From Mesaphorura yosii (Eukaryota > Arthropoda > Collembola > Poduromorpha > Tullbergiidae): a DNA stretch of 64,000 bases. Below, in pieces: positions 25,201-55,500 of the stretch. The first letter of the stretch is position 1. Every line of letters begins with the position of its first letter. A program made the position numbers and the translations under genes. The notes beneath the pieces are model-generated. The model saw nothing but the letters and a program-made list of their open reading frames with translations, did not search any database and was not told where the DNA came from. Where the stretch lies: positions 1 through 64,000 of the forward strand of contig WIXG01000128.1 of NCBI GenBank assembly GCA_009869945.1. Direction: 5' to 3'.

Positions 25201-28200
25201 GTAATTTCATCCTTCATATCGGCCAGGCAGGCACAACTTTGTAGTTAATAATGTAGATCATTAGCCACGATGTAACTTTCCTTTTGTTCTTTCTCCTCCA
25301 TTTATTACTAAATGCTCCTGGCTCCATTGTTCGCAGTTGTCTGGTGGGGGGCTTCATGCTTCAATTAGGAAGAAAAATGTCGCTCGTAATTGTGGCACTG
25401 CCGTTCTCCTGCTCGTGGCTCCTCACCGTCTTTGCGCAGCGCGTCGAGATGATTTACAGCACTTCCTTTATTGGAGGCTTCTTCTCAGCAGTCATTCTCC
25501 TCGCAACCCAAGTAAGCCAACATCTCCATTCGACCAATTCCATTCTTCCATCAGTCTCGACTGAGCTCGATTAATTGCGGTCCCTTTGCTTAGGTTTACG
25601 TGAGTGAGATTTCGCACCCTGAAATTCGGGGTTGTCTGAGTTCTGTGCTCAAGATATTCGGCTACCTGGGGCACTTGTGCTCCTCCGCCCTGGGCGCCTT
25701 CCTCGACTGGCGCCAGCTGGCGGCCTTCGCGGCGTGCGCCCCGATCGCCTTCTTCGTGGCGGTGCTCTTCGTTCCGGAGACTCCGAGCTTCCTTCTCTTC
25801 CACGGGCGCGAGGAGGAGGCGTCCAAGTCGCTCCGGTGGCTCCGTTCGAACGGGGACGACGTGCATAGCGAGATGGAGACGCTGCGGGGGAACATCAAGG
25901 GCAAGAAGAAGAGACTGATTCCGAAATGCTCACTTCAATTCACGCACCTCCTCTGCATCACCTGCGGACTCATGTTCTTCCACAAGTTCTCGGGCGTCAC
26001 CGTGTTCAACCATTACGCAGTCTCCATCTTCCAGCAGGTAAGCCCCAAAGCCTCTTGCCTTGCTGCCCCTGCAGTAAATACACTCGACCCTCAATTGTCA
26101 CTCGCACAGGTGTACAGGCGCTCCATCAACTCCACCTCCGCCTTTGCCATTGAGTCGGATGATTTTAATTTGACCGCGTCTTTGGTACACATACATTCAG
26201 TTTATGATTTCTAATACGTTTGTGAATCTCGTACGCCTTTCCATTTAGGCCTGTTTTGTTTAATTTTGAAAGGATTTCCCTGTCTCGCTTGAAAGTAGCC
26301 ACTCGAGTCTCATGGTTAGCCCATTCTTTTATCTTTTGTTTGTGCTTTTATTTAATTTTGATTTGACAATTCGAAGCGTTTGATCACTGGCCCATTGATG
26401 GACGTACCCAGCCCTGTCCAATTGACACGCATTCCCGTTAACTCTCGTGTGTATCCATTGTTTAGGTTTTTGGGAGGTCTTTGAATCCTCACGGAGCCGC
26501 CATCATCGTGGTGTTTCTTCAGCTGCTGGGGTCCATGACTTCCGGACTGCTCATCGACACTGCAGGTACGAAGCACTCAATCGTCGAGGCCCCATTCGCT
26601 CCACCGACAAGTCAACAGTTCATGTGTTTGTTTGCAGGGCGGATTCCGTTGCTCACGATTTCGACTTTGTTCATTTCTGCGAGCTGCTTCGGCTTCGGAC
26701 TCTACAATTACATGGAGGCGTCCCTCCCGCCGTGGAGCCCAGGCTTCGGCTCTTCCCTCGGTTGGATCCCACTCACCTGCGTCCTCATCTTCACTCTCTT
26801 CTTCTCAATTGGTAACACCGCAACTGCCCACGGTGCCCGTATGGTAAACATTCTGGCGCTAAATCTGTGATTTTCTTGGCAGGGATTGGACCGATTTCTT
26901 GGTTGATGGTTGGCGAGCTGTTCCCTCTGGAGTACAGAGAGTTCGGGGGCGCCATTTCGACAGCGTTCAGCTACGCGTGTGCCTTTACGGCAGTGAAGAC
27001 GTACGTGGACATCAACCTACAGATCGGTCTTCACGGGACGTTTTGGGTCTATGCAGGCGTCTCCATCGTAGGCCTCTTCTTCATCAGCTGCATCGTCCCG
27101 GAGACGAAGGGCATCGAGCTGGAGGAAATGCACCATCCGTCGGCACCTCCGACCATCATCTTGGGCGCCACGCCGCCCTCGACGCTCCGTACAGCGAAGT
27201 ACGGCTACGGCCGACACTCGACGAACGTGAGCGTGAACCCCGTCGAGAATCACCTCCTCAACCTCCGCCAGTCCAACGACAAGAAGCTGCTTAGCTCCTC
27301 CTCGCCATCGCTCTCCTCCGCCACAGCCAAGCAGTCGTTCATCACCTCATTCAGCAACTGTCCAAACATCCTTGCGAGCATCAAAAACTCCTCCGACAAC
27401 TCGTCGCTAAGCAGCAACCTGCGGAACTCGAATCAGCACAGCTTCCCACTCAAGAATCCTTCGTCGGAGATGCACATCAACAACCTCAACTTGAGTCCTT
27501 CGATGATGGCAAAGATGCACAACATTTCTCCGACCGGACAAATGACTCCACAACTCGAGGAGGAGTACCACAACAGATTTGGGCCGCCACAATACCAGTC
27601 GTACAAGCAGAATTTGGATAGCGAGAGTCCTCCGCCGTTCTCGTACGACCAGGCGCGGGCACTGAGCATGCTTGCCAGGAGCCATGAGTCAGAGTTTGAG
27701 CGCGAGGCGTACGCGTACCGCAGCCACAACCACCAAGTGCCGCTCCCACCGGAGCCGTACCCACACTTTTACGAGTTTGACGACGATACGGAGACGATCA
27801 CCACCAACGACATCATCGACAAGTACGACAAATTCCTGCTGGAGCACTACGACTCGCTCTGCGACGATGACGAGACGGAAACGGCGAGCGAAGCAGGCGG
27901 ACTGACGAGTCTCTACGACGAGGCGTGCAGGTTCGACCTCCAGCCAGCGAGCAGACACTCCTACCCGGGCGGCGGCAAGTATCATGACGACGACGATCCG
28001 TATCAGGGCGAATATCATAGCAGCTGCAGCAGCGGGAGGGACAGGAGCACATATCACGTGGCCAGCTCCTTCGCGCCCTCCGCACATCCGCATCAGCACC
28101 ACGGCTACAGCCCACTCTTCCGATTCGACCCACAACCGCACCAGCCAGCGCCGTCGTCGTTGTTTGGACGGCCGTCTTCCAACTTCATCCACCACACCCA

Positions 28201-28267
28201 CGCAGACGCGGCCGCGTACCTCCTCCGCAGCAGCGCCGGCCGGCCGGGGGCTGGCACCAACGTCTGA
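13147..28267 (+). CDS. Tret1: Tret1-like facilitated sugar (trehalose) transporter, MFS/SLC2 family
   Basis: A predicted 12-helix plasma-membrane uniporter of the sugar porter family, closest by motif to arthropod facilitated trehalose transporters. Exons: 13147-13206 (proposed), 22422-22544, 25154-25200, 25337-25511, 25594-26037, 26466-26565, 26638-26811, 26883-28267; all phases match, giving about 835 residues. Visible family signatures are LGRKMS after helix 2, YVSEISHPEIRG in helix 4, PETPSFLLFHGR after helix 6, DTAGRIPLL after helix 8 and PETKGIELEEM after helix 12. The usual helix-7 QQxxG motif is changed (KFSGVTVFNHY), so the substrate is uncertain. The first exon is inferred: ATG at 13147 begins 20 codons ending KEEKPK at a GTAAGA donor, in phase with VLATLAVSLGP across a 9.2 kb intron. 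After about residue 460 comes an unusual tail of some 375 residues rich in Ser, His, Pro, Asp and Tyr. Family assignment is firm; the first exon is not. Confidence 0.85.
13207..22421 (+). other. Presumed first intron of the sugar transporter; no other gene seen
   Basis: If the first exon is right, this 9.2 kb is intronic. I see no exon of a known family on either strand. It holds GCAG-type short arrays (13857-13884, 19641-19660) and AT-rich and GC-rich patches. Regulatory elements may lie here, but none can be identified by eye. Confidence 0.45.
13857..13884. repeat. GCAG/GCGG tandem array
   Basis: Seven contiguous GCRG tetramers (five GCAG, two GCGG). A run of the complementary word, CCTGCCTGCCTG, lies at 13927-13938, so the two could pair across about 40 bases. 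Confidence 0.85.
26110..26184 (+). other. Possible optional or relic exon in the sugar transporter
   Basis: Between the helix-7 exon (ends 26037) and the helix-8 exon (starts 26466), a good acceptor (CTCGCACAG at 26101-26109) is followed by an open phase-0 segment. It begins V-Y-R-R-S-I-N, against V-F-G-R-S-L-N at the start of the 26466 exon. A weak donor (GTACAC) follows at 26185; 75 nt would add 25 residues, including an NST glycosylation sequon, to the helix 7-8 loop. Without a donor, the frame stops at 26212-26214. The normal loop length in this family is met by skipping it. Confidence 0.25.
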
Positions 28268-33118: not shown

Positions 33119-34535
33119 GTTTGGATCCGTTTCACGTAATTCTCTCAGAATTTCTTAGTAAATAGATGGCCTTATCTTTTGAATAATCCCTTTGATTTTT
33201 GATAAGGTGGGGTCTGCAAAATGGATGAGAATTTCTGCTTCAAGTCCAGTTCGAGTTCGAAGAATCTGCGAATATTCTGGAGTAGTGTAGTGGAATTATT
33301 TGATTTGGTCATGTGAAAGTGTCTACGCCTTTCGAATAAATGTTTTTGAGGAGACTTTTGCATTCGAGCGAGCTGTCGTGTACACATAACCAAGCAAGCT
33401 GAGCTGAGCTCGAATCAAACTCGAACTCGGCTGTGTGAGTCACATGCTTCGACTCACGAAACTATTCAATTCATTGCGTTTGTGTACGGTTAACCCAACA
33501 TGGGCATACACACAGGCACTGAGCACGGGCTCTCGCTGCTGGAGTGGAGTGGAAAGTGTGAATCGTGAATTCTGAATAAGTAGATTTGAAATGTAATTGT
33601 AATTGAGTTCTATTAAGTTACGCAAGAAATAATAAGTTCATCGTTAGCGTTAGTAGTTAGCACAGCGGCAGGCACAGGCACATGCAGAAGATCACGCAAG
33701 CAACGGAGATAACTACGAAAGGCTTGCTGGTGGAGGTGGGAAATGACCCAGTTAATTTCACACTCAGTTCCATCGTCTCATCTTCATCTCATTTATAAAT
33801 CTCCTTTCGTCTGCGTATAGGGAACGTCTTCAGAATAATTGGAGTAGCCCATAGCGTAATTGCGCCGCAGTGGTGGAGGTGGGGCAGTAATTGATTCATT
33901 GGATATGACCAGACTTCAAGAATAACTGATCGCTATCACTTTTTTGTCGATTACTGGGCATTACTTGTAAATTAGGTAAGTTAAGTTGCATGACACATTA
34001 GAGTCTCATTCTTTCGTGGCCGATAGGGCTCTTAGTATAAATTGATTTTATGCGCTTCATTGTTCATTGTTTCAGCTTCAAAGATCAACAGCCGATGACC
34101 AAAGAACAATGCGGACGCGCTCAACCAAAGCTAAAGCGCCTCTTCGTCCTGTTTCAAGATAATTGAAAGTAAGTGATATATTAACCAAGCACTTAGCACT
34201 GGTAGCAAAGTGTCTGGTAGTGGGAAATTTGTTAATGTGAGTGGAAGATTTAAGATGTACGGTACACATATTAGAGTAATGAGAAGTGAGTTTGTAACAT
34301 TCAAGTGTGCAAGACTGCGAGACTCGACAGATTATTCAAAAGAGTGAAGAGGTCAAAGGTCACACTCGTTTCGTCATCGTCTACGTCGCGTGGAGTAAAC
34401 CCGGCCGTTGGCGTCATATTTAGTTCAGATAAATTAGAGACGCACGCAACACACGCACAGCTGAATATTGATTCCTCTTTCTGTAGCCCCAGCCGTTCAT
34501 TACACGGCGGAACAGGGCCGGGAAGTCGCCCGACA
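33119..34535. promoter_or_regulatory. Divergent intergenic region between RagC/D and the folate carrier
   Basis: The two genes point away from each other across 1.4 kb, so both promoters and 5' UTRs should lie here. No TATA box is obvious. The frame of the carrier's first coding exon stays open upstream of its ATG to about 34305, so a spliced 5' exon cannot be excluded. No other gene seen. Confidence 0.5.
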
Positions 34536-35968
34536 ATGAAAGGATTCAACTCAAGCGAATTCGCAAATACCTTGACAGCCTTCCCCCAGCCGGTGGCTAG
34601 ACCACAGTTGTTATCGGAGTCAGCAGAATTTTCTAGTCCAAAGCCTAGTACTTTAACTCCTCGACCTCAGCTGATGTCCTACCTGACCACCAAAGAACCC
34701 GTCAAAGCCAGCACGTTAGCTTCCAGCGTCTCATCACCTTCAACATCCCTGATGGCCTCATCGGCATCTTCTTCTCCGCTGATTGGTTCATCGGGTTCTT
34801 CGCGGCGCCCTCACTTTTTGTCACATATACGAATGGAGCACCTGGCAGCAGGAGTGACGGGAGGAGTTGTTTCGACGCTGGTGCTTCATCCCTTGGATTT
34901 AGTCAAAATTCGCTTCGCTGTGAACGACGGCCTGACTTCGAGACCGCAGTACAACGGACTTTACGACGCCTTCAAGTTGATTTGGAGAACGGAAGGAATC
35001 CGAGGTCTTTACAGGTGAGTCTCTCAATTGCGTCAATTGTCCTTGCCTTCCTGCGGTATGACTTATGGAAATTGACAAATAATGCGAATTGTGTTTGATT
35101 TGAGCAGAGGAGTGACGCCAAATGTGTGGGGAGCCGGCTCCGCGTGGGGTTTGTACTTCTTTTTCTACACGGCAATGAAAGACTGGTGGCAGGGCGGCGA
35201 TACGCGAAAAGACTTGGGTGCCTCCAGACACATGGTCATTGCTTCGGAAGCGGGTCTCGTGACGCTCCTATTCACAAATCCCCTGTGGGTTGTGAAAACC
35301 CGCCTTTGCCTGCAGTATGGCGTCTTGGGTCCTGCTGCCACGGCCACGACTCTTGGGCCAAGTAAGTCGAGGCATTTAATTTCAAACCCCAATAATTTTC
35401 ACTACCCTTTTGCTCAACCTGAATTAAATTTAATGCCACAGGCGGCGCTGTGCTGTCGACGACCACGTACTCTGGCATGCTTGATGCACTGAGGAAAATC
35501 TGGAGGATGGAGGGAATCAAGGGGCTCTACCGAGGCTTCGTGCCGGGCATTTTCGGCGTCAGTCACGGAGCCATTCAGTTCATGACGTACGAGGAGATGA
35601 AGACGGTGTACAACCAGTATCGCCTCCTGCCTATCGACACCAAACTTGTGAGTATTGACCAACTACTCCACCACCATAACATTGTAATTTAGCGTTTGGC
35701 GTATTTGCAGAGCACAGTGGAGTACCTCACGTTTGCGGCTGTGTCGAAACTGATCGCAGCCGCGACGACGTACCCTTACCAGGTGGTGCGAGCCCGTCTT
35801 CAAGACCAGCACCGCTCCTACGCCGGGGTGATGGACGTGATCCGGCAGACGTGGAGGTATGAAAGAGTTCGCGGTTTTTACAAAGGCTTGACTCCGTACC
35901 TCGTTCATGTGACGCCAAACATCTGCCTAGTATTTCTAATTTATGAGAAGTTTACTAGAAGTAGTTGA
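34536..35968 (+). CDS. SLC25A32: SLC25A32 short form with alternative last segment
   Basis: If the donor at 35857 is not used, exon 4 runs on (35711-35968) and gives 398 residues. The read-through segment is not random: [18 protein letters not shown] and the following residues to FLIYEK align without gaps to the distal exon's [18 protein letters not shown] to FVVYEK. So it encodes a second version of the last helix, ending FTRSS. In the short form the Asn and Arg of PNLIRV become Tyr and His (His379 for Arg379). A poly(A) signal at 36458-36463 would end this transcript before the distal exon. The coding similarity is seen directly; use of both forms is inferred. Confidence 0.7.
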
Positions 35969-38691: not shown

Positions 38692-41600
38692 ATGGTTCCA
38701 AGCACACACTGCCAGAGTCCCGCTCCCGCTTTGGGGCGGCTGATTTTCATGGCCTCGTGCACTTGCTTGATTCTGCTGTCCATCGCATCCTCCTCGAGAG
38801 CCGACACGGTGTACCGTGTCGGAGTGGGCATCGCTGACATCACGGGCCCATCGGCAGAAATCGGAATGGTGAGTTGGAACTTAAACAGTTTAAACTGCCG
38901 GTGACACTCAATGCGTCACCGGAAATTTCTTGGAACAGGCTGCAAACAACAAACACTGACGCTGCGCTGGCGGGCAGAGTCTCACAGTAGCGTACGCAGC
39001 ATGAGGAAAAAAAGCCGTTTATTACTTCAAACTTTCAGGAGTTTAGCTCGTCAAATGTTATATCAGATGCCACCATCTCGTTGGGGCATGTTTACGACTT
39101 ACAAGACAAAGTTTGCCGTCATTCTTAGAACTAGTACGAACTATGAAACTAATGACACTAACTATGAAACTAATAACTATGACTGCTTAATCCTACTTCG
39201 ATTTCTAAGGTTCAAAGCATCTTAGTTTGCTTTCATGGTCTCAATGAGCGTAGGTTGCTTATTAAAGTTGTTACTTGAAGAGCGTTTCACTTGCCTTGCG
39301 GCGCTACTCGTGAATTTCCATTTTTCGATTTCCATTTGCCAATTATCGTATGCCGGAAATTAAGTTGGGTGCCCCTCAGCCATTAAAGTCGTTTGCGACA
39401 ATAAATATTGTGTATGCTTTTTCAGATGGGGTACGCGAACCCGGCTCAGTCGGCCAGAGGGATCCACACAAGACTCTTTTCTCGAGCCTTCGTATTCGAA
39501 GAAGGAGGCTCGAGAGTGGTCTACGTGTCGGCCGATATGGGAATGATCGATCAGTCCGTCAAATTCAAGGTCAGTGAGCTCTCTTCACACGCTGAAAATG
39601 CTGATTGCCGTTTGCCTTCGCTCTTTGCTGGATTATTTGCTTTGATTCTGCTCTTGGCTTTGCAATGCCGCTCCGTCCATTATTCTTTATTGTCCCAAAC
39701 ACATGTTTGGAAGTCGGAACTCAAGACTAAATGACTCATAACTTTAATTGGGCAAAACACGCGGCGCTTTCATGTCATCCGCCACAGCCTCAGCAAAATC
39801 AGACGGAGACCGAGTTCTGACGTAATTCCAATCCAATTAAAGCGGTTTAACACATTTTTTCGTCGATTTGGAAGATTTCGAGGAGACTTGCAAGTTGGCA
39901 GACTCAAAAATTCAGACAACTTTAAAACTTTGGTCAGCTGTTCTATACAGTTGCACTGTGATTGAAAGCTTGAGCTGTAATCTGTTTGATAAATTTCCAA
40001 CCATGAAGTTTCAGGATCAGTTGTACTTTTTAAATTTGGCTATCAATGTCGTTCTGCTGCACTCCGTCGGCCTCTGCACAGGTACGAGCATTAACACTTG
40101 ACTAACTTAGTCAAAGTTCCGCTTCACCTTCACTTTACTGATTCCTGTTTCGAGCCCAGCAAGAGCTGACGGAGAGGCTGCGACGGCAGGGGCGGATGCT
40201 GCCACTACGGCCGCTGCTGCAGGAGCTGACGCAACAACGCAGGCTGTGACGGATCTTTCCGCCCCAACGGACGTCTCCGCCACTGGTAATCCGAGTGCAG
40301 ACAACTCTCAACCGCAGCAGGCTCAGCCGGTCAGTCAAGGGAGCGGGGGCTACTCGGGCCCTACGGGGAAAGGGGGCATCGATCTGCTAATTCGATTCGA
40401 CTACTTCAAAAAGAATTTCAAGGTTGATGCTCAAGTACGTGTCACATTCCACAAATTCCACTGTGTGTGCTTAATATGAGCGAAGTGAAGGACATGACAG
40501 TGGTAAAGACAGTGTAACTGGCTGGAAGCTGGAGGCTGGCTGGCTCTGACGTGTGTCGGTCCCGAGATCATAAATAATCGCACTCCCGGACGGAGTAAAA
40601 GTAATGGAGTAGTGAATTATCGGGTCTCGTATTACATGCTGTAATGCATAATCTCGAATGTCACTGCCACTGCCATCGAATTTCGCATTCCGGTCGATTA
40701 ATCATTGCTTATTGCATTACTCGGTTGTGCACTCGCAGGGGAACAAGAAGATCGGCTACACTCACCAATGCCAGTACGTGCCCGACAAGTGCGCGAGCAT
40801 CACTCCGCCAATCACGCGGTCCTTTGCGAGACAACTCCTCACAGCAGACCTGGCAGGGTTTGAGGACTGCGTGAGAACCAGTGTCAAGTATTCACGACTC
40901 TCCAAACCTCAGTTTTCGGCGCTCGTCGCGTTCACCTTCAACATGGGGTGCGACCACTTGCAGAAATCCATGCTCCTGGAAAAGCTGAACGCGGGCAACG
41001 TGAAAGCGGCAGTGGCCGAGTTTATCAAAAACGTTTCCTTTGGTGGTAAAACATATCCTGGCCTCGTGAAACGAAGACGCGCCGAGAGAAAACTCTTCTG
41101 CGCCAAGAAAGCCTGCAAATGAGGGCCGATGACGATGATCGGATAAATCTTGAGCCTGATCTTCGATAGTTTCAATGTGAACGAAACAGAATTCCAGAAT
41201 CTTGCCGCAATCGATTTTTTGTCAGAAATAAATGAGCACATTTGTTCATGTCTATTCGACCATGAATTTTTGTGTCGGGTCATTTTCGTTGTTTAACAGT
41301 TGCTGGGTTCAAATATCAAATAGGTTTTCAGCTTCTTGGTTTTGCTCTCTGCTCAAAGCTTTCGCGTGCTTGTTCTTAATGCTGGCTTTACACCAAGTAA
41401 TAACGGCCTTTTGCTATTTGCTTTCTTGGGCAGGTCGTTGAAGAATTGAAAAGGATTTATGACGACAACGTTTACCACGCCAAAAACGTGTTGCTGAGTG
41501 GCACGCACACTCACTCCGGACCCGGCGGCTACATCCAGTACCTCCTGTACGCTAACACTTATTTAGTAATTCCCCTTCCCGATGCGGTGTCCCAATAAAT

Positions 41601-52266: not shown

Positions 52267-52500
52267 GTTTGTGTGTCTGGGGTTTGTCGGCTGAAGCTGC
52301 AGTTGAAACTCGAGAACAAATTGTGCACAAAAGCAGCGCATTCAGCACTCAGTTTCATTGCATCTTTCTCTTATTTCTTCCGGTCCCATTTCGATTCCTG
52401 TTTCACGCACATTAAGGACGACGGCAATGAAGTAGATCAGAAGAACAGATCTTTTGAGATACGTGCTCGTGCCCGTGCTTGTGGCCGTACTACTTTCTCA
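52267..52500 (+). other. Probable 5' untranslated part of the receptor's first coding exon
   Basis: A pyrimidine-rich acceptor (TTTTTCTTAG ending at 52266) precedes the receptor ATG by 234 nt. The frame is open upstream of the ATG but has no other in-frame ATG. An upstream untranslated exon is implied. Confidence 0.4.
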
Positions 52501-55500
52501 ATGTCATCGTCATCGGCTTACAGTGAACGGAGGAAATTATGGATAGCGCCAATACTTCATGAAATGATAACGACGTCTTTATCGCCGGCGCCATCTTCGT
52601 CTTCGTCCGGGTCCACGTCTTCATCTTCCCTTGGCATTGGCCTCGACAATAACAATGCTTCAGTCTCCAGCGGCAGCGACGGCAACAGCAGCGCCAGGGC
52701 GTCAGTGTCCAGCAGAGGAATGACTGGTCGAAATGCGTCTGCGTCGTTGTCGTCCATCATTTCGCAGGTGCTTCTGTCACCAATGGTCGCCTCCTCTTCC
52801 GCCTCACCCGACTTGTCTTTCTACGAGCTCGACCGCGGCTCCCGGACCGCCATTCTCGGGCACGGAGCCACCACTGCAATGGGCAGCGGCTCTCTTTCGA
52901 TGCCCGTTGACCCGCTCCTAGCCGAGGAAGCCATCGACGCTGCGGCCGCCGCTTCGACGGGGAACGGAACGGACTTCCACTGGCCGATTCGTGACCCGTT
53001 GTACATTGTGATTCCGATCACGATCATTTACATTCTGATCCTTATCACGGGGCTGCTGGGGAACATTGTGACGTGCGTGGTGATTGTGCGCTCGCGGTAC
53101 CTCCACACGGCGACCAACTACTACCTCTTCAGTCTTGCCATCTCGGACCTCCTCCTCCTCCTCTCCGGACTTCCCGCAGAGATGCACACCATCTGGCGAC
53201 GTTACCCCGACGTCTTTGGCGAGGTCTTCTGCGTCGCGAAGGGGCTCGCCTCCGAAACCTCTGCCAACGCCACCGTGCTGACCATCGCCGCCTTCACGGT
53301 GGAGCGCTACCTCGCCATCTGCAAGCCGTTCCTCATTCAAAAGTGGCAGAACAAACTCTCGCGCGTCGTGCGACAAATCCTCGTCATTTGGGTCATCTCT
53401 GTCGTCCTCGCCGTCCCGCAGGTAAGCAGCACTTAATTAATTGATGGGCATCTCATCTTTTGACAGGGCAAAGGCAAGGGCAGTTTGGCCGGCTGTCCCT
53501 CCGATTGCGAAGATTAATTGTTAATTGGCATTTCGAAGCACTTTGCCGGATAGCGTGTTTAATGGTCCTTGTCAGGAAATAAAAATTGTTTCTGGCAACC
53601 ATTGGCAGAGGTTCATAAGTTGTGGCTACACTAACTCAATTTCTGTTTATATAAATGACAGCTGTCACGCTGTCAGACAAGCAAGTACATGGATTCATTC
53701 ATTGACATTGAAGTGGCTTTGACTGTGATTGTGATTGGCTGACCGCCGCCCTGCCTTATCAGGCTTTGACTTTGGCAGCCTGGGACGGTATTCGTCGTGC
53801 TGTTGTTATTTACTTCGCGTGCAACGTGCAAGGCCAAACATGTAGCAGGCAGGCAGCCAGCGCTTTGCTTTGTTCGCTTTCGGGGGACTCTCATTTGCAA
53901 TTCGAATCAGGGCAATCGCAATCGGCAGGACGCTCACAGTAAACGAAAGTTATGCAATAAATCCGGCTGCATAAAAGAACTTTGCCTTTCATTTCATCGA
54001 CGCGTGTGATCTGGTTAAAAATAAAGAACGACATTTGCCATTTAACGGGCGTTACAAGCACAAAGTTGCGTTGGGCATTAATTATTTTAATGAGTGAGTG
54101 TCATCATCGAACTTTCATCAAAGCGCTTTTGATTCCAATGGCTGGCGGTTGAGGCAGGCAGGACAACTTCCGGCCGCGGCTGCAGCAGTAGCGAATTCCT
54201 TTCAGAATAAACCTAATAAACGGGTAAATAGACGACTGCCACATGGCGAACATTGGGAAGTGACCAACCTCAAAGCAAACAAATTAAAATTATTAACATT
54301 GAGTAAATTGACTGAGTTCCCACCGGACTCAAATTCCAGTGAACTCTCCAGCGCCATCGCCATTGCTTAACTCTCAATTTATCCCACGTGTCCGCATTAT
54401 AAATTAATTTTTCATCTCGCAAGAGAATGTCAGGGTAGTGCAATAAATTGCAAAGGGCAGAATGCAAAATTATCCGTGCGATCGTCGTGCCTGCGGCTGT
54501 CGGCCAGCAATCTTATTGCGAATGCTCCGGGAACAGCAATGCTGGTTCCCGGGTTTATCAGTCGATATGGCTTAGGCTGAGGTCAGCGCTTTCACCAACG
54601 CGACTTGACTTGTTGTCCGCCACAAAACAAGATTAGCGTCAGTCGCCACTGACCGACAGCGCAGGCAGAGGCCTGGCCTTTATTGTAGGCAGTCGGCAGT
54701 TGATTAATTACAGTGCTGCGGGTAGAACAAAAGGCGACCTTCTCCAGGCGCAGGCCATCAAGCGCTTATGGCCGTGGCGTGCATGTGCGTTATTGTCATG
54801 GCTCTACTATCGATTCCTCTAACTATCCGTGGCTGATTCCCAAATCCTGGCGAAAGCAAAGCTTGTGGGCCGTGCTGTGCTGATACCGCACTTGCTGTGG
54901 GCCCGCAATCACACACGCGCAGGCAGACAACAAAAGAAAATGACATGACAGGCGCATATTTTTCACGGCAATAATCGCATGTTGGCCAGAACGCCAGAAG
55001 AAGCCTGCCAAGGTGAACAAATGTGATACCCGAACCCGATTTATTGCATCGCATTTATTACGGCACTTTGTTCGCTGTTTGTTCGCTGCTCGCCCCAATT
55101 TTGTTTTATGAAATATTACTGTGCCGACTCCGATTGTTTGTGTTGTGCATTTAGCGACCGCGACTGCGACGGGCAAAGGCGGGTCAAAGCGAAAGAGAAT
55201 TGTAGCAAAAGTTTCTTAGCGTTCGGCTGCCTGCCAGAGGCCTAAAGAAAATGATGAAATTGACATTCAAATAACTGATAACATGTGTTTTACGCGTCGG
55301 TGCGTGCACGTGGACACGCATTTGCATGTCATCCATGCAGCAAACGCTAATCTCAATCCGCCCGACCCGGCTCATAAAATTGGAGTGCACTCATGCATGG
55401 GAAAAAGGAATTGAACCCGTATAGACAATTTTGAATGAAATTCCTGTGTCCTCTTACACATTCCTCGCATTCGCATCAAAGGTGCGCTGGAGCTGCTGGA

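What the first reader, a model, noticed from the sequence alone, without database searches (positions are those of the whole stretch)
40003..41122. Phage-type GH24 lysozyme gene nested in an intron of a neutral ceramidase
A complete spliced gene with signal peptide, linker, GH24 domain and poly(A) signal sits on the same strand inside ceramidase intron 2. GH24 is mainly a phage and bacterial family and reports in animals are patchy. The introns, signal peptide and cysteines show it is domesticated rather than contamination. A secreted T4-like lysozyme in an arthropod would suggest immune or digestive use after horizontal transfer. Same-strand nesting also makes the host transcript pass through the lysozyme splice and poly(A) signals.
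Basis: partly seen in the sequence, partly recalled or inferred. Interest (0 to 1): 0.85.

Follow-up and report, generated by a model that had tools for sequence, protein, structure and literature searches.

The report
Intron-nested, probably inactivated animal lysozyme
A small invertebrate, probably a springtail, carries a secreted lysozyme-like gene inside another gene's intron, but its cell-wall-cutting residues have been replaced and it has become strongly positively charged, so it probably no longer cuts bacterial walls and may instead bind them.

Summary
The gene is real: exons 40003-40081, 40160-40434 and 40739-41122 splice into 245 residues with a hydrophobic N-terminus, an Ala-rich linker and a GH24 domain (Pfam 3e-27), on the same strand inside ceramidase intron 2 (39570-41433). 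GH24 enzymes use Glu-X8-Asp/Cys-X5-Thr; this copy has Asp-X8-Asp-X5-Lys. Of 140 homologue rows, Glu stands in 128 of 129 filled and Thr in 129 of 131. Of 24 near-invariant columns it departs at six, five of them in the active-site lobe (p=0.007, regions chosen afterwards). Its domain is the most cationic of 132 compared. Its cysteines tie it to secreted eukaryotic GH24 (springtails, gnats, mites, fungi), not phages, though tree tests leave its branch open. The one other GH24 gene found in the genome has an intact triad and an SH3b-like tail, and is also intron-nested. Best reading: an old, domesticated GH24 relative, probably catalytically dead or crippled, acting if expressed as a cationic wall-binding or antibacterial protein. 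Expression and activity are untested.

The parts
40003..40081 (+). GH24-like gene exon 1: ATG, hydrophobic N-terminus (putative signal peptide)
   Evidence: splice and translation; hydrophobicity
40160..40434 (+). exon 2: acidic Ala/Thr/Ser-rich linker and the start of the GH24 domain, including the positions of the catalytic Glu and Asp
40739..41122 (+). exon 3: remainder of the GH24 domain and stop codon
   Evidence: PF00959 hit at 40733-41086
40399..40401 (+). codon GAC (Asp107) where GH24 enzymes have the catalytic Glu (T4 Glu11; AcLys Glu64)
   Evidence: residue numbers of T4 and AcLys from PMC8228626 Table 3
40426..40428 (+). codon GAT (Asp116), retained at the catalytic Asp/Cys position
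40748..40750 (+). codon AAG (Lys122) at the catalytic Thr position
40760..40762 (+). codon ACT (Thr126) at the otherwise invariant Gly of the GYGH motif
   Evidence: Gly in 131 of 131 filled rows
41227..41232 (+). AATAAA poly(A)-like signal of the nested gene
39570..41433 (+). ceramidase intron 2, host of the nested gene
   Evidence: in-frame exon joins
38692..38868 (+). neutral ceramidase exon 1
39426..39569 (+). neutral ceramidase exon 2, ends in phase 0
   Evidence: PF04734
41434..43326 (+). neutral ceramidase, further exons (span of the PF04734 matches downstream of intron 2; only the first 119 nt were joined in frame)

Best explanation
This is a host-resident relative of the secreted, cysteine-bearing GH24 lysozymes found in springtails, gnats, mites and fungi. 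It has lost the GH24 catalytic centre (Glu to Asp, Thr to Lys, Gly to Thr, with further active-site-lobe changes) but kept most near-invariant positions of the C-terminal lobe and the cysteines. Shown: gene structure, nesting, triad replacement, high positive charge, and absence of the SH3b-like domain that the genome's other GH24 protein has. Inferred: it is expressed as its own transcript, is secreted, hydrolyses peptidoglycan poorly or not at all, and acts by binding anionic bacterial surface polymers through its strongly cationic domain (net +17, pI 9.9), with the acidic linker possibly shielding or spacing that charge. It would then be a non-enzymatic antibacterial or recognition protein, working beside the intact GH24 copy on contig C144.
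For: Alignment to the solved AcLys (6ET6) and fungal 8B2S, without a gap across the triad, places Asp107, Asp116 and Lys122 on the Glu, Asp and Thr positions (6ET6 Glu64/Asp73/Thr79 from Table 3 of PMC8228626). Of 140 homologue rows: Glu in 128 of 129 filled, Thr in 129 of 131, Gly in 131 of 131. Departures from near-invariant columns cluster in the active-site lobe, 5 of 8 against 1 of 16, one-sided p=0.007. Highest net charge of 132 domain rows of at least 120 residues, +16 against a mean of 2.1 (s.d. 4.7) and a next-highest 14; linker pI 4.05. Open frame, GT-AG introns, poly(A)-like signal. A relative with intact triad is in the same genome. [quoted passage not shown]
Against: No expression, secretion or activity data. 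Asp at the Glu position could leave residual acid catalysis; a search for an assay of this change found no paper in the held library. Long branch (1.13) and no close orthologue found, so purifying selection could not be measured and a young pseudogene with a still-open frame is not excluded. A further core position in the C-terminal lobe is also changed: Asn where 140 of 140 other rows have Trp, Tyr or Phe; it fell below the 90% rule and so is not in the 5-of-8 against 1-of-16 count. The two regions compared were chosen after seeing the data. The leader is less hydrophobic than the paralogue's. High charge alone does not show antibacterial action: active homologue-like rows reach +14 (P0045, P0101), and T4 lysozyme is itself basic (recalled).
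Confidence: 0.58

Rival explanations
1. An active secreted lysozyme (immune or digestive) in which Asp107 serves as a weaker general acid and the Lys is tolerated.
For: Strong PF00959 score; second catalytic Asp kept; cysteines kept; Asp is a carboxylate.
Against: Glu in 128 of 129 filled homologue rows and Thr in 129 of 131; the motif Glu-X8-Asp/Cys-X5-Thr is said to occur in all published structures of the family (PMC8228626, passage); three further near-invariant active-site-lobe positions changed.
Confidence: 0.2
2. A decaying duplicate: recently unconstrained, not yet broken by a frameshift or stop.
For: Lowest retention of near-invariant residues of 130 comparable rows (18 of 24; next 19 of 24); a conserved aromatic of the C-terminal lobe is Asn; no close orthologue found; no SH3b domain.
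Against: Full open frame over three exons with GT-AG sites, hydrophobic leader and poly(A)-like signal; near-invariant changes cluster in the active-site lobe; all six cysteines after the leader stand at aligned cysteine positions of the C144 protein.
Confidence: 0.17
3. Exon 3 serves as an alternative terminal exon of the ceramidase transcript, giving a ceramidase N-terminus fused to part of the GH24 fold.
For: Ceramidase exon 2 ends in phase 0 and lysozyme exon 3 starts in phase 0, so that join reads in frame.
Against: The gene has its own ATG, hydrophobic leader and stop; lysozyme exon 2 starts in phase 1 and would not be in frame after ceramidase exon 2; a phase match is expected one time in three; the fusion would lack the segment with the Glu and Asp positions.
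Confidence: 0.05
4. Independent acquisition of this copy from a bacterium, phage or fungus, separate from the C144 copy.
For: AU tests do not reject grouping with the bacterial/phage-like rows (p=0.136) or with the arbuscular-fungal rows (p=0.374); the best-scoring database hit of the whole product is a protein labelled Acaulospora morrowiae (P0001, 46%).
Against: The free tree puts it in a 98/89 clade of 30 rows with springtail and gnat proteins; cysteines match the eukaryotic type, which speaks against a bacterial or phage source but not a fungal one; a phase-1 intron just after the leader is shared with C144, although such introns are common at that spot (recalled).
Confidence: 0.15

Closest known systems
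Secreted GH24 proteins of springtails, sciarid gnats and Dermatophagoides (source names) and gall midges (PMC8455502, passages)
   Same: GH24 domain, leader, conserved cysteines; arthropod genome; fungus-like relatives
   Different: The six named arthropod rows aligned here (P0017, P0023, P0033, P0038, P0050, P0054) have Glu and Thr at the triad; some carry an SH3b domain. The window copy has neither, and has an acidic linker and high positive charge. Gall-midge proteins were not aligned.
Fungal GH24 muramidase of Trichophaea saccata, 8B2S (PMC10394673, passages)
   Same: Best-scoring solved structure, E=2.1e-20; eukaryotic
   Different: Has an N-terminal SH3-like wall-binding domain and Glu and Thr at the aligned positions; the window copy has a low-complexity linker instead
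Insect c-type lysozyme-like proteins BLLP1/ALLP1 (PMC8071013, passages)
   Same: Lysozyme relatives without the catalytic residues; non-enzymatic antibacterial activity reported
   Different: c-type (GH22), a different sequence family
SpmX of Caulobacter (NCBIfam NF051871; PMC5347347, passages)
   Same: Lysozyme-like domain reused, with no lysozyme activity detected by its authors
   Different: Bacterial polarity factor that keeps the Glu; the window score (45.6) is far below the family cut-off (700); the intact C144 protein scores alike (48.6) and BgtA scores higher for both, so the match is not specific to the window copy
Bivalve co-opted phage lysozymes (PMC5303276, passages)
   Same: Animal GH24 genes with gained introns
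   Different: Reported as phage-derived and antibacterial; not aligned here. The window copy has a replaced triad and eukaryotic-type cysteines

Membership tests
GH24 (Pfam PF00959) by sequence | profile match above curated cut-off | tested here: met
   95.8 bits against cut-off 22.3
GH24 as an active muramidase | catalytic Glu-X8-Asp/Cys-X5-Thr | tested here: not met
   reads Asp-X8-Asp-X5-Lys; motif from PMC8228626
GH24 as an active muramidase | peptidoglycan hydrolysis | not testable with these tools
   needs purified protein
Secreted eukaryotic (arthropod/fungal) GH24 type | conserved domain cysteines | tested here: met
   five window cysteines in the cut domain, C over filled rows: 28/28, 28/28, 28/28, 28/28, 26/28 in springtail-type rows; 10, 8, 8, 10, 9 of 10 in AM-fungus/Basidiobolus rows; 7, 7, 7, 7, 6 of 7 in mite/Bradysia rows; 12/12 for the first four and 0/11 for the fifth in lichen-type rows; 3/52, 3/7, 11/65, 10/64, 4/65 in 65 other rows; 18 rows not grouped were left out
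Springtail/gnat GH24 clade | grouping in a tree | tested here: inconclusive
   98/89 support in the free tree, but of five AU tests only the lichen-type grouping was rejected
Springtail/gnat GH24 with SH3b | C-terminal SH3b domain | tested here: not met
   no SH3 hit at E up to 1. The C144 protein has a weak one: 19 bits, below the cut-off of 27, with matches to solved SH3-like domains 8B2F, 8B2G and 8B2H
SpmX | NCBIfam equivalog cut-off | tested here: not met
   45.6 bits against 700
Non-catalytic lysozyme-like antibacterial protein | antibacterial action without hydrolysis | not testable with these tools
   inferred from triad loss and charge only

The most novel reading that the evidence does not exclude
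An animal GH24 pseudo-lysozyme: a horizontally derived wall-cutting enzyme turned, inside an arthropod genome, into a secreted, strongly cationic non-enzymatic antibacterial or wall-sensing protein with an acidic shielding linker, expressed from within a ceramidase intron. It would be a GH24 parallel to the c-type lysozyme-like proteins of insects.
Probability: 0.4. Interest if true: 0.65.

Novelty: new variant of a known kind. Interest (0 to 1): 0.5.

Why it matters
Acquired antibacterial enzymes in animals are easily presumed to keep their old activity. An acquired lysozyme that has lost its catalytic residues while keeping most of its fold positions, beside an intact relative in the same genome, would give a clean pair for testing how acquired enzymes change function. 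It also warns against naming such genes 'lysozyme' from a domain hit alone.

Tried and rejected
Rejected: contamination (ceramidase exons with introns flank the gene on both sides). Held unlikely: a recent phage gene (introns and eukaryotic-type cysteines; a viral-contig scan with single-sequence patterns, which finds only close relatives, matched 12 stretches and confirmed none). Rejected: an expanded array (one other GH24 place found by a family search and a protein search; more divergent copies could be missed). Led nowhere: the search for close orthologues with the whole product (only the 7997 candidates sharing most words were scored; best-scoring hit 46% identical over 62%) and with the domain alone (10 hits, best-scoring 43% over 92%); Rfam scan of the window, 0 matches; paper searches on E11D, on non-catalytic insect lysozyme-like proteins and on SpmX with GH24, 0 papers each. 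Five AU tests did not settle the placement. Structure prediction was not run: the tool takes proteins read letter for letter from the window and this one is spliced; alignment to solved structures answered the residue question.

Full report
WHAT IS THERE. The window belongs to a 93.0 Mb, 1127-contig assembly (contig C128). Exons 40003-40081, 40160-40434 and 40739-41122 join with GT-AG introns of 78 and 304 nt into one 245-residue frame. PF00959 matches residues 109-234 at 3.1e-27, and five PHROGs endolysin families match. The flanking ceramidase exons (38692-38868, 39426-39569, 41434-41552) join in frame, fixing intron 2 at 39570-41433; further PF04734 matches run to 43326, two of them with a stop read inside the match, and were not spliced by me. 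AATAAA sits at 41227.

THE ORGANISM. It is not named. The genome's other GH24 protein is 64% identical to an Allacma fusca (springtail) protein over 98%, with Orchesella and Folsomia proteins lower in the list; it is 78% identical over 99% to the unnamed P0010 and 81% over 74% to the unnamed P0018, and sits among such unnamed rows in the tree. A springtail is likely but unproven, since a gnat protein (P0033) shares the clade.

THE CATALYTIC CENTRE. phmmer aligns the product to 6ET6 and 8B2S without a gap across the triad. Counting along the 6ET6 alignment, residues 107, 116 and 122 fall on Glu64, Asp73 and Thr79, which Table 3 of PMC8228626 lists as that enzyme's putative key catalytic residues (passages read). 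The window has Asp, Asp, Lys. A MAFFT alignment of 141 domain rows (window, C144 and 139 proteins: 9, the 120 listed of 218, 10) gives, among the 140 other rows, Glu in 128 of 129 filled (the exception, P0061, has a gap at the Asp column and looks poorly aligned there), Asp in 107 and Cys in 19 of 130 filled, Thr in 129 of 131, and the Gly of GYGH in 131 of 131. All 128 homologues with the three sites filled have Glu; none reads Asp-Asp-Lys. The set was gathered by word-sharing searches and is not a census of GH24.

WHERE THE CHANGES FALL. Of 24 columns that are filled in at least 100 rows and at least 90% uniform among the other rows, the window keeps 18, the lowest of 130 comparable rows, the next keeping 19. 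Because the columns were chosen on the other rows, the window is handicapped in that ranking. The distribution is less affected: 5 of 8 such columns in the N-terminal active-site region are changed against 1 of 16 in the rest (one-sided Fisher p=0.0069), with the regions chosen after seeing the data. Against a clean picture, a position that is Trp, Tyr or Phe in 140 of 140 other rows is Asn in the window; it lies in the later region but is only 86% Trp and so was not counted.

CHARGE AND ARCHITECTURE. Residues 94-245 have net charge +17 and pI 9.9; the corresponding part of the C144 copy (24-180) has 0 and 6.9. Among 132 domain rows of at least 120 residues, the window included, it is highest at +16 (mean of the others 2.1, s.d. 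4.7, next two 14). The 66-residue linker has 18 Ala, 7 acidic and 1 basic residue and pI 4.05. The C144 copy has a C-terminal SH3b-like domain, below Pfam's cut-off but matching solved SH3-like domains 8B2F, 8B2G and 8B2H; the window copy shows none. The window protein has six cysteines after the leader, each aligned to a cysteine of the C144 protein. The five that lie in the cut domain are shared with eukaryotic rows and rare in the 65 other rows, except that lichen-type rows lack the fifth; 18 ungrouped rows were left out of this count. The 28 'springtail-type' rows include one gnat and many unnamed proteins, and the groups follow the tree.

ANCESTRY. A 92-row tree (of 141: rows of at least 120 residues, with P0067-P0129 thinned to every fourth plus named ones) places the window, on a long branch of 1.13, in a 30-row clade (98/89) with springtail-type and gnat proteins, next to arbuscular-fungus and Basidiobolus proteins. 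Five AU tests, on groups named after the tree was seen, give p=0.417 (with the springtail-type rows without Bradysia), 0.374 (AM fungi and Basidiobolus), 0.31 (mite-type), 0.136 (bacterial/phage-like) and 0.013 (lichen-type): only the last is rejected. The cysteines are therefore the firmer evidence for a eukaryotic type, and a separate fungal source remains possible. Both GH24 genes have a phase-1 intron just after the leader.

NESTING. Both GH24 genes found are inside introns: the window copy on the same strand as ceramidase, the C144 copy antisense in an LRR-gene intron (L001 870-2235; frame continuous across it). Two of two is suggestive but too few to interpret.

CONTEXT. The genome also gives c-type lysozyme matches (10 places), i-type (5 places), no GH25 at E up to 0.001, and a second ceramidase on C70. 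Places are exon-level matches, not gene counts. The host thus has other lysozyme families besides GH24, which lowers the need for the window copy to be an enzyme.

HOW IT PROBABLY WORKS. Shown: the sequence facts above. Inferred: secretion, folding with disulfides, weak or absent hydrolysis, and electrostatic binding of anionic wall polymers. Lys122 beside Asp107 and Asp116 might ion-pair and close the catalytic water site; this is inference. The precedent for non-enzymatic antibacterial lysozyme-like proteins in insects is c-type (PMC8071013, passages). For reuse of a lysozyme-like domain without detected activity it is SpmX (PMC5347347, passages), found through a weak NCBIfam match that the intact C144 protein shares.

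PRIOR ART. GH24-like lysozyme transfer to gall midges with fungal affinity, and presence in Bradysia and Dermatophagoides, are in PMC8455502 (passages); bivalve GH24 in PMC5303276 (passages). PMC13389597 (passages) reports a chimeric gene cluster shared by springtails, gnats and mites; in its main text 'lysozyme' occurs only in the reference list. The listings of ten paper searches showed no report of a non-catalytic animal GH24; the library is open-access only and I read passages of nine of the listed papers.

Noticed in passing
L001:1328-2175 (own genome C144): The genome's other GH24 gene has an intact Glu-Asp-Thr triad and an SH3b-like tail and lies antisense inside an intron (870-2235) of an LRR gene, so both GH24 genes found are intron-nested.
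   Followed up: yes
proteins P0001, P0042, P0045, P0047, P0048, P0053, P0055, P0058, P0059 against the springtail-type rows: Proteins labelled as from arbuscular fungi share a cysteine-bearing GH24 type with springtails, sciarid gnats and mites, which suggests transfer among soil eukaryotes; direction, and contamination of the fungal records, were not tested.
   Followed up: partly
own genome C70:52824-54428: A second neutral ceramidase whose matches lie in a long frame of 552 aa with one stop read inside a match; apparently intron-poor, unlike the window's.
   Followed up: no
own genome C328, C297, C535: c-type lysozyme matches inside open frames of 441, 449 and 500 aa, longer than a usual c-type lysozyme (recalled); possibly multidomain.
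   Followed up: no
window 25594-28267, 34290-35018, 52267-53436: Open frames that look like parts of a sugar transporter, a mitochondrial carrier and a seven-helix receptor (recalled motifs; no family search run).
   Followed up: no
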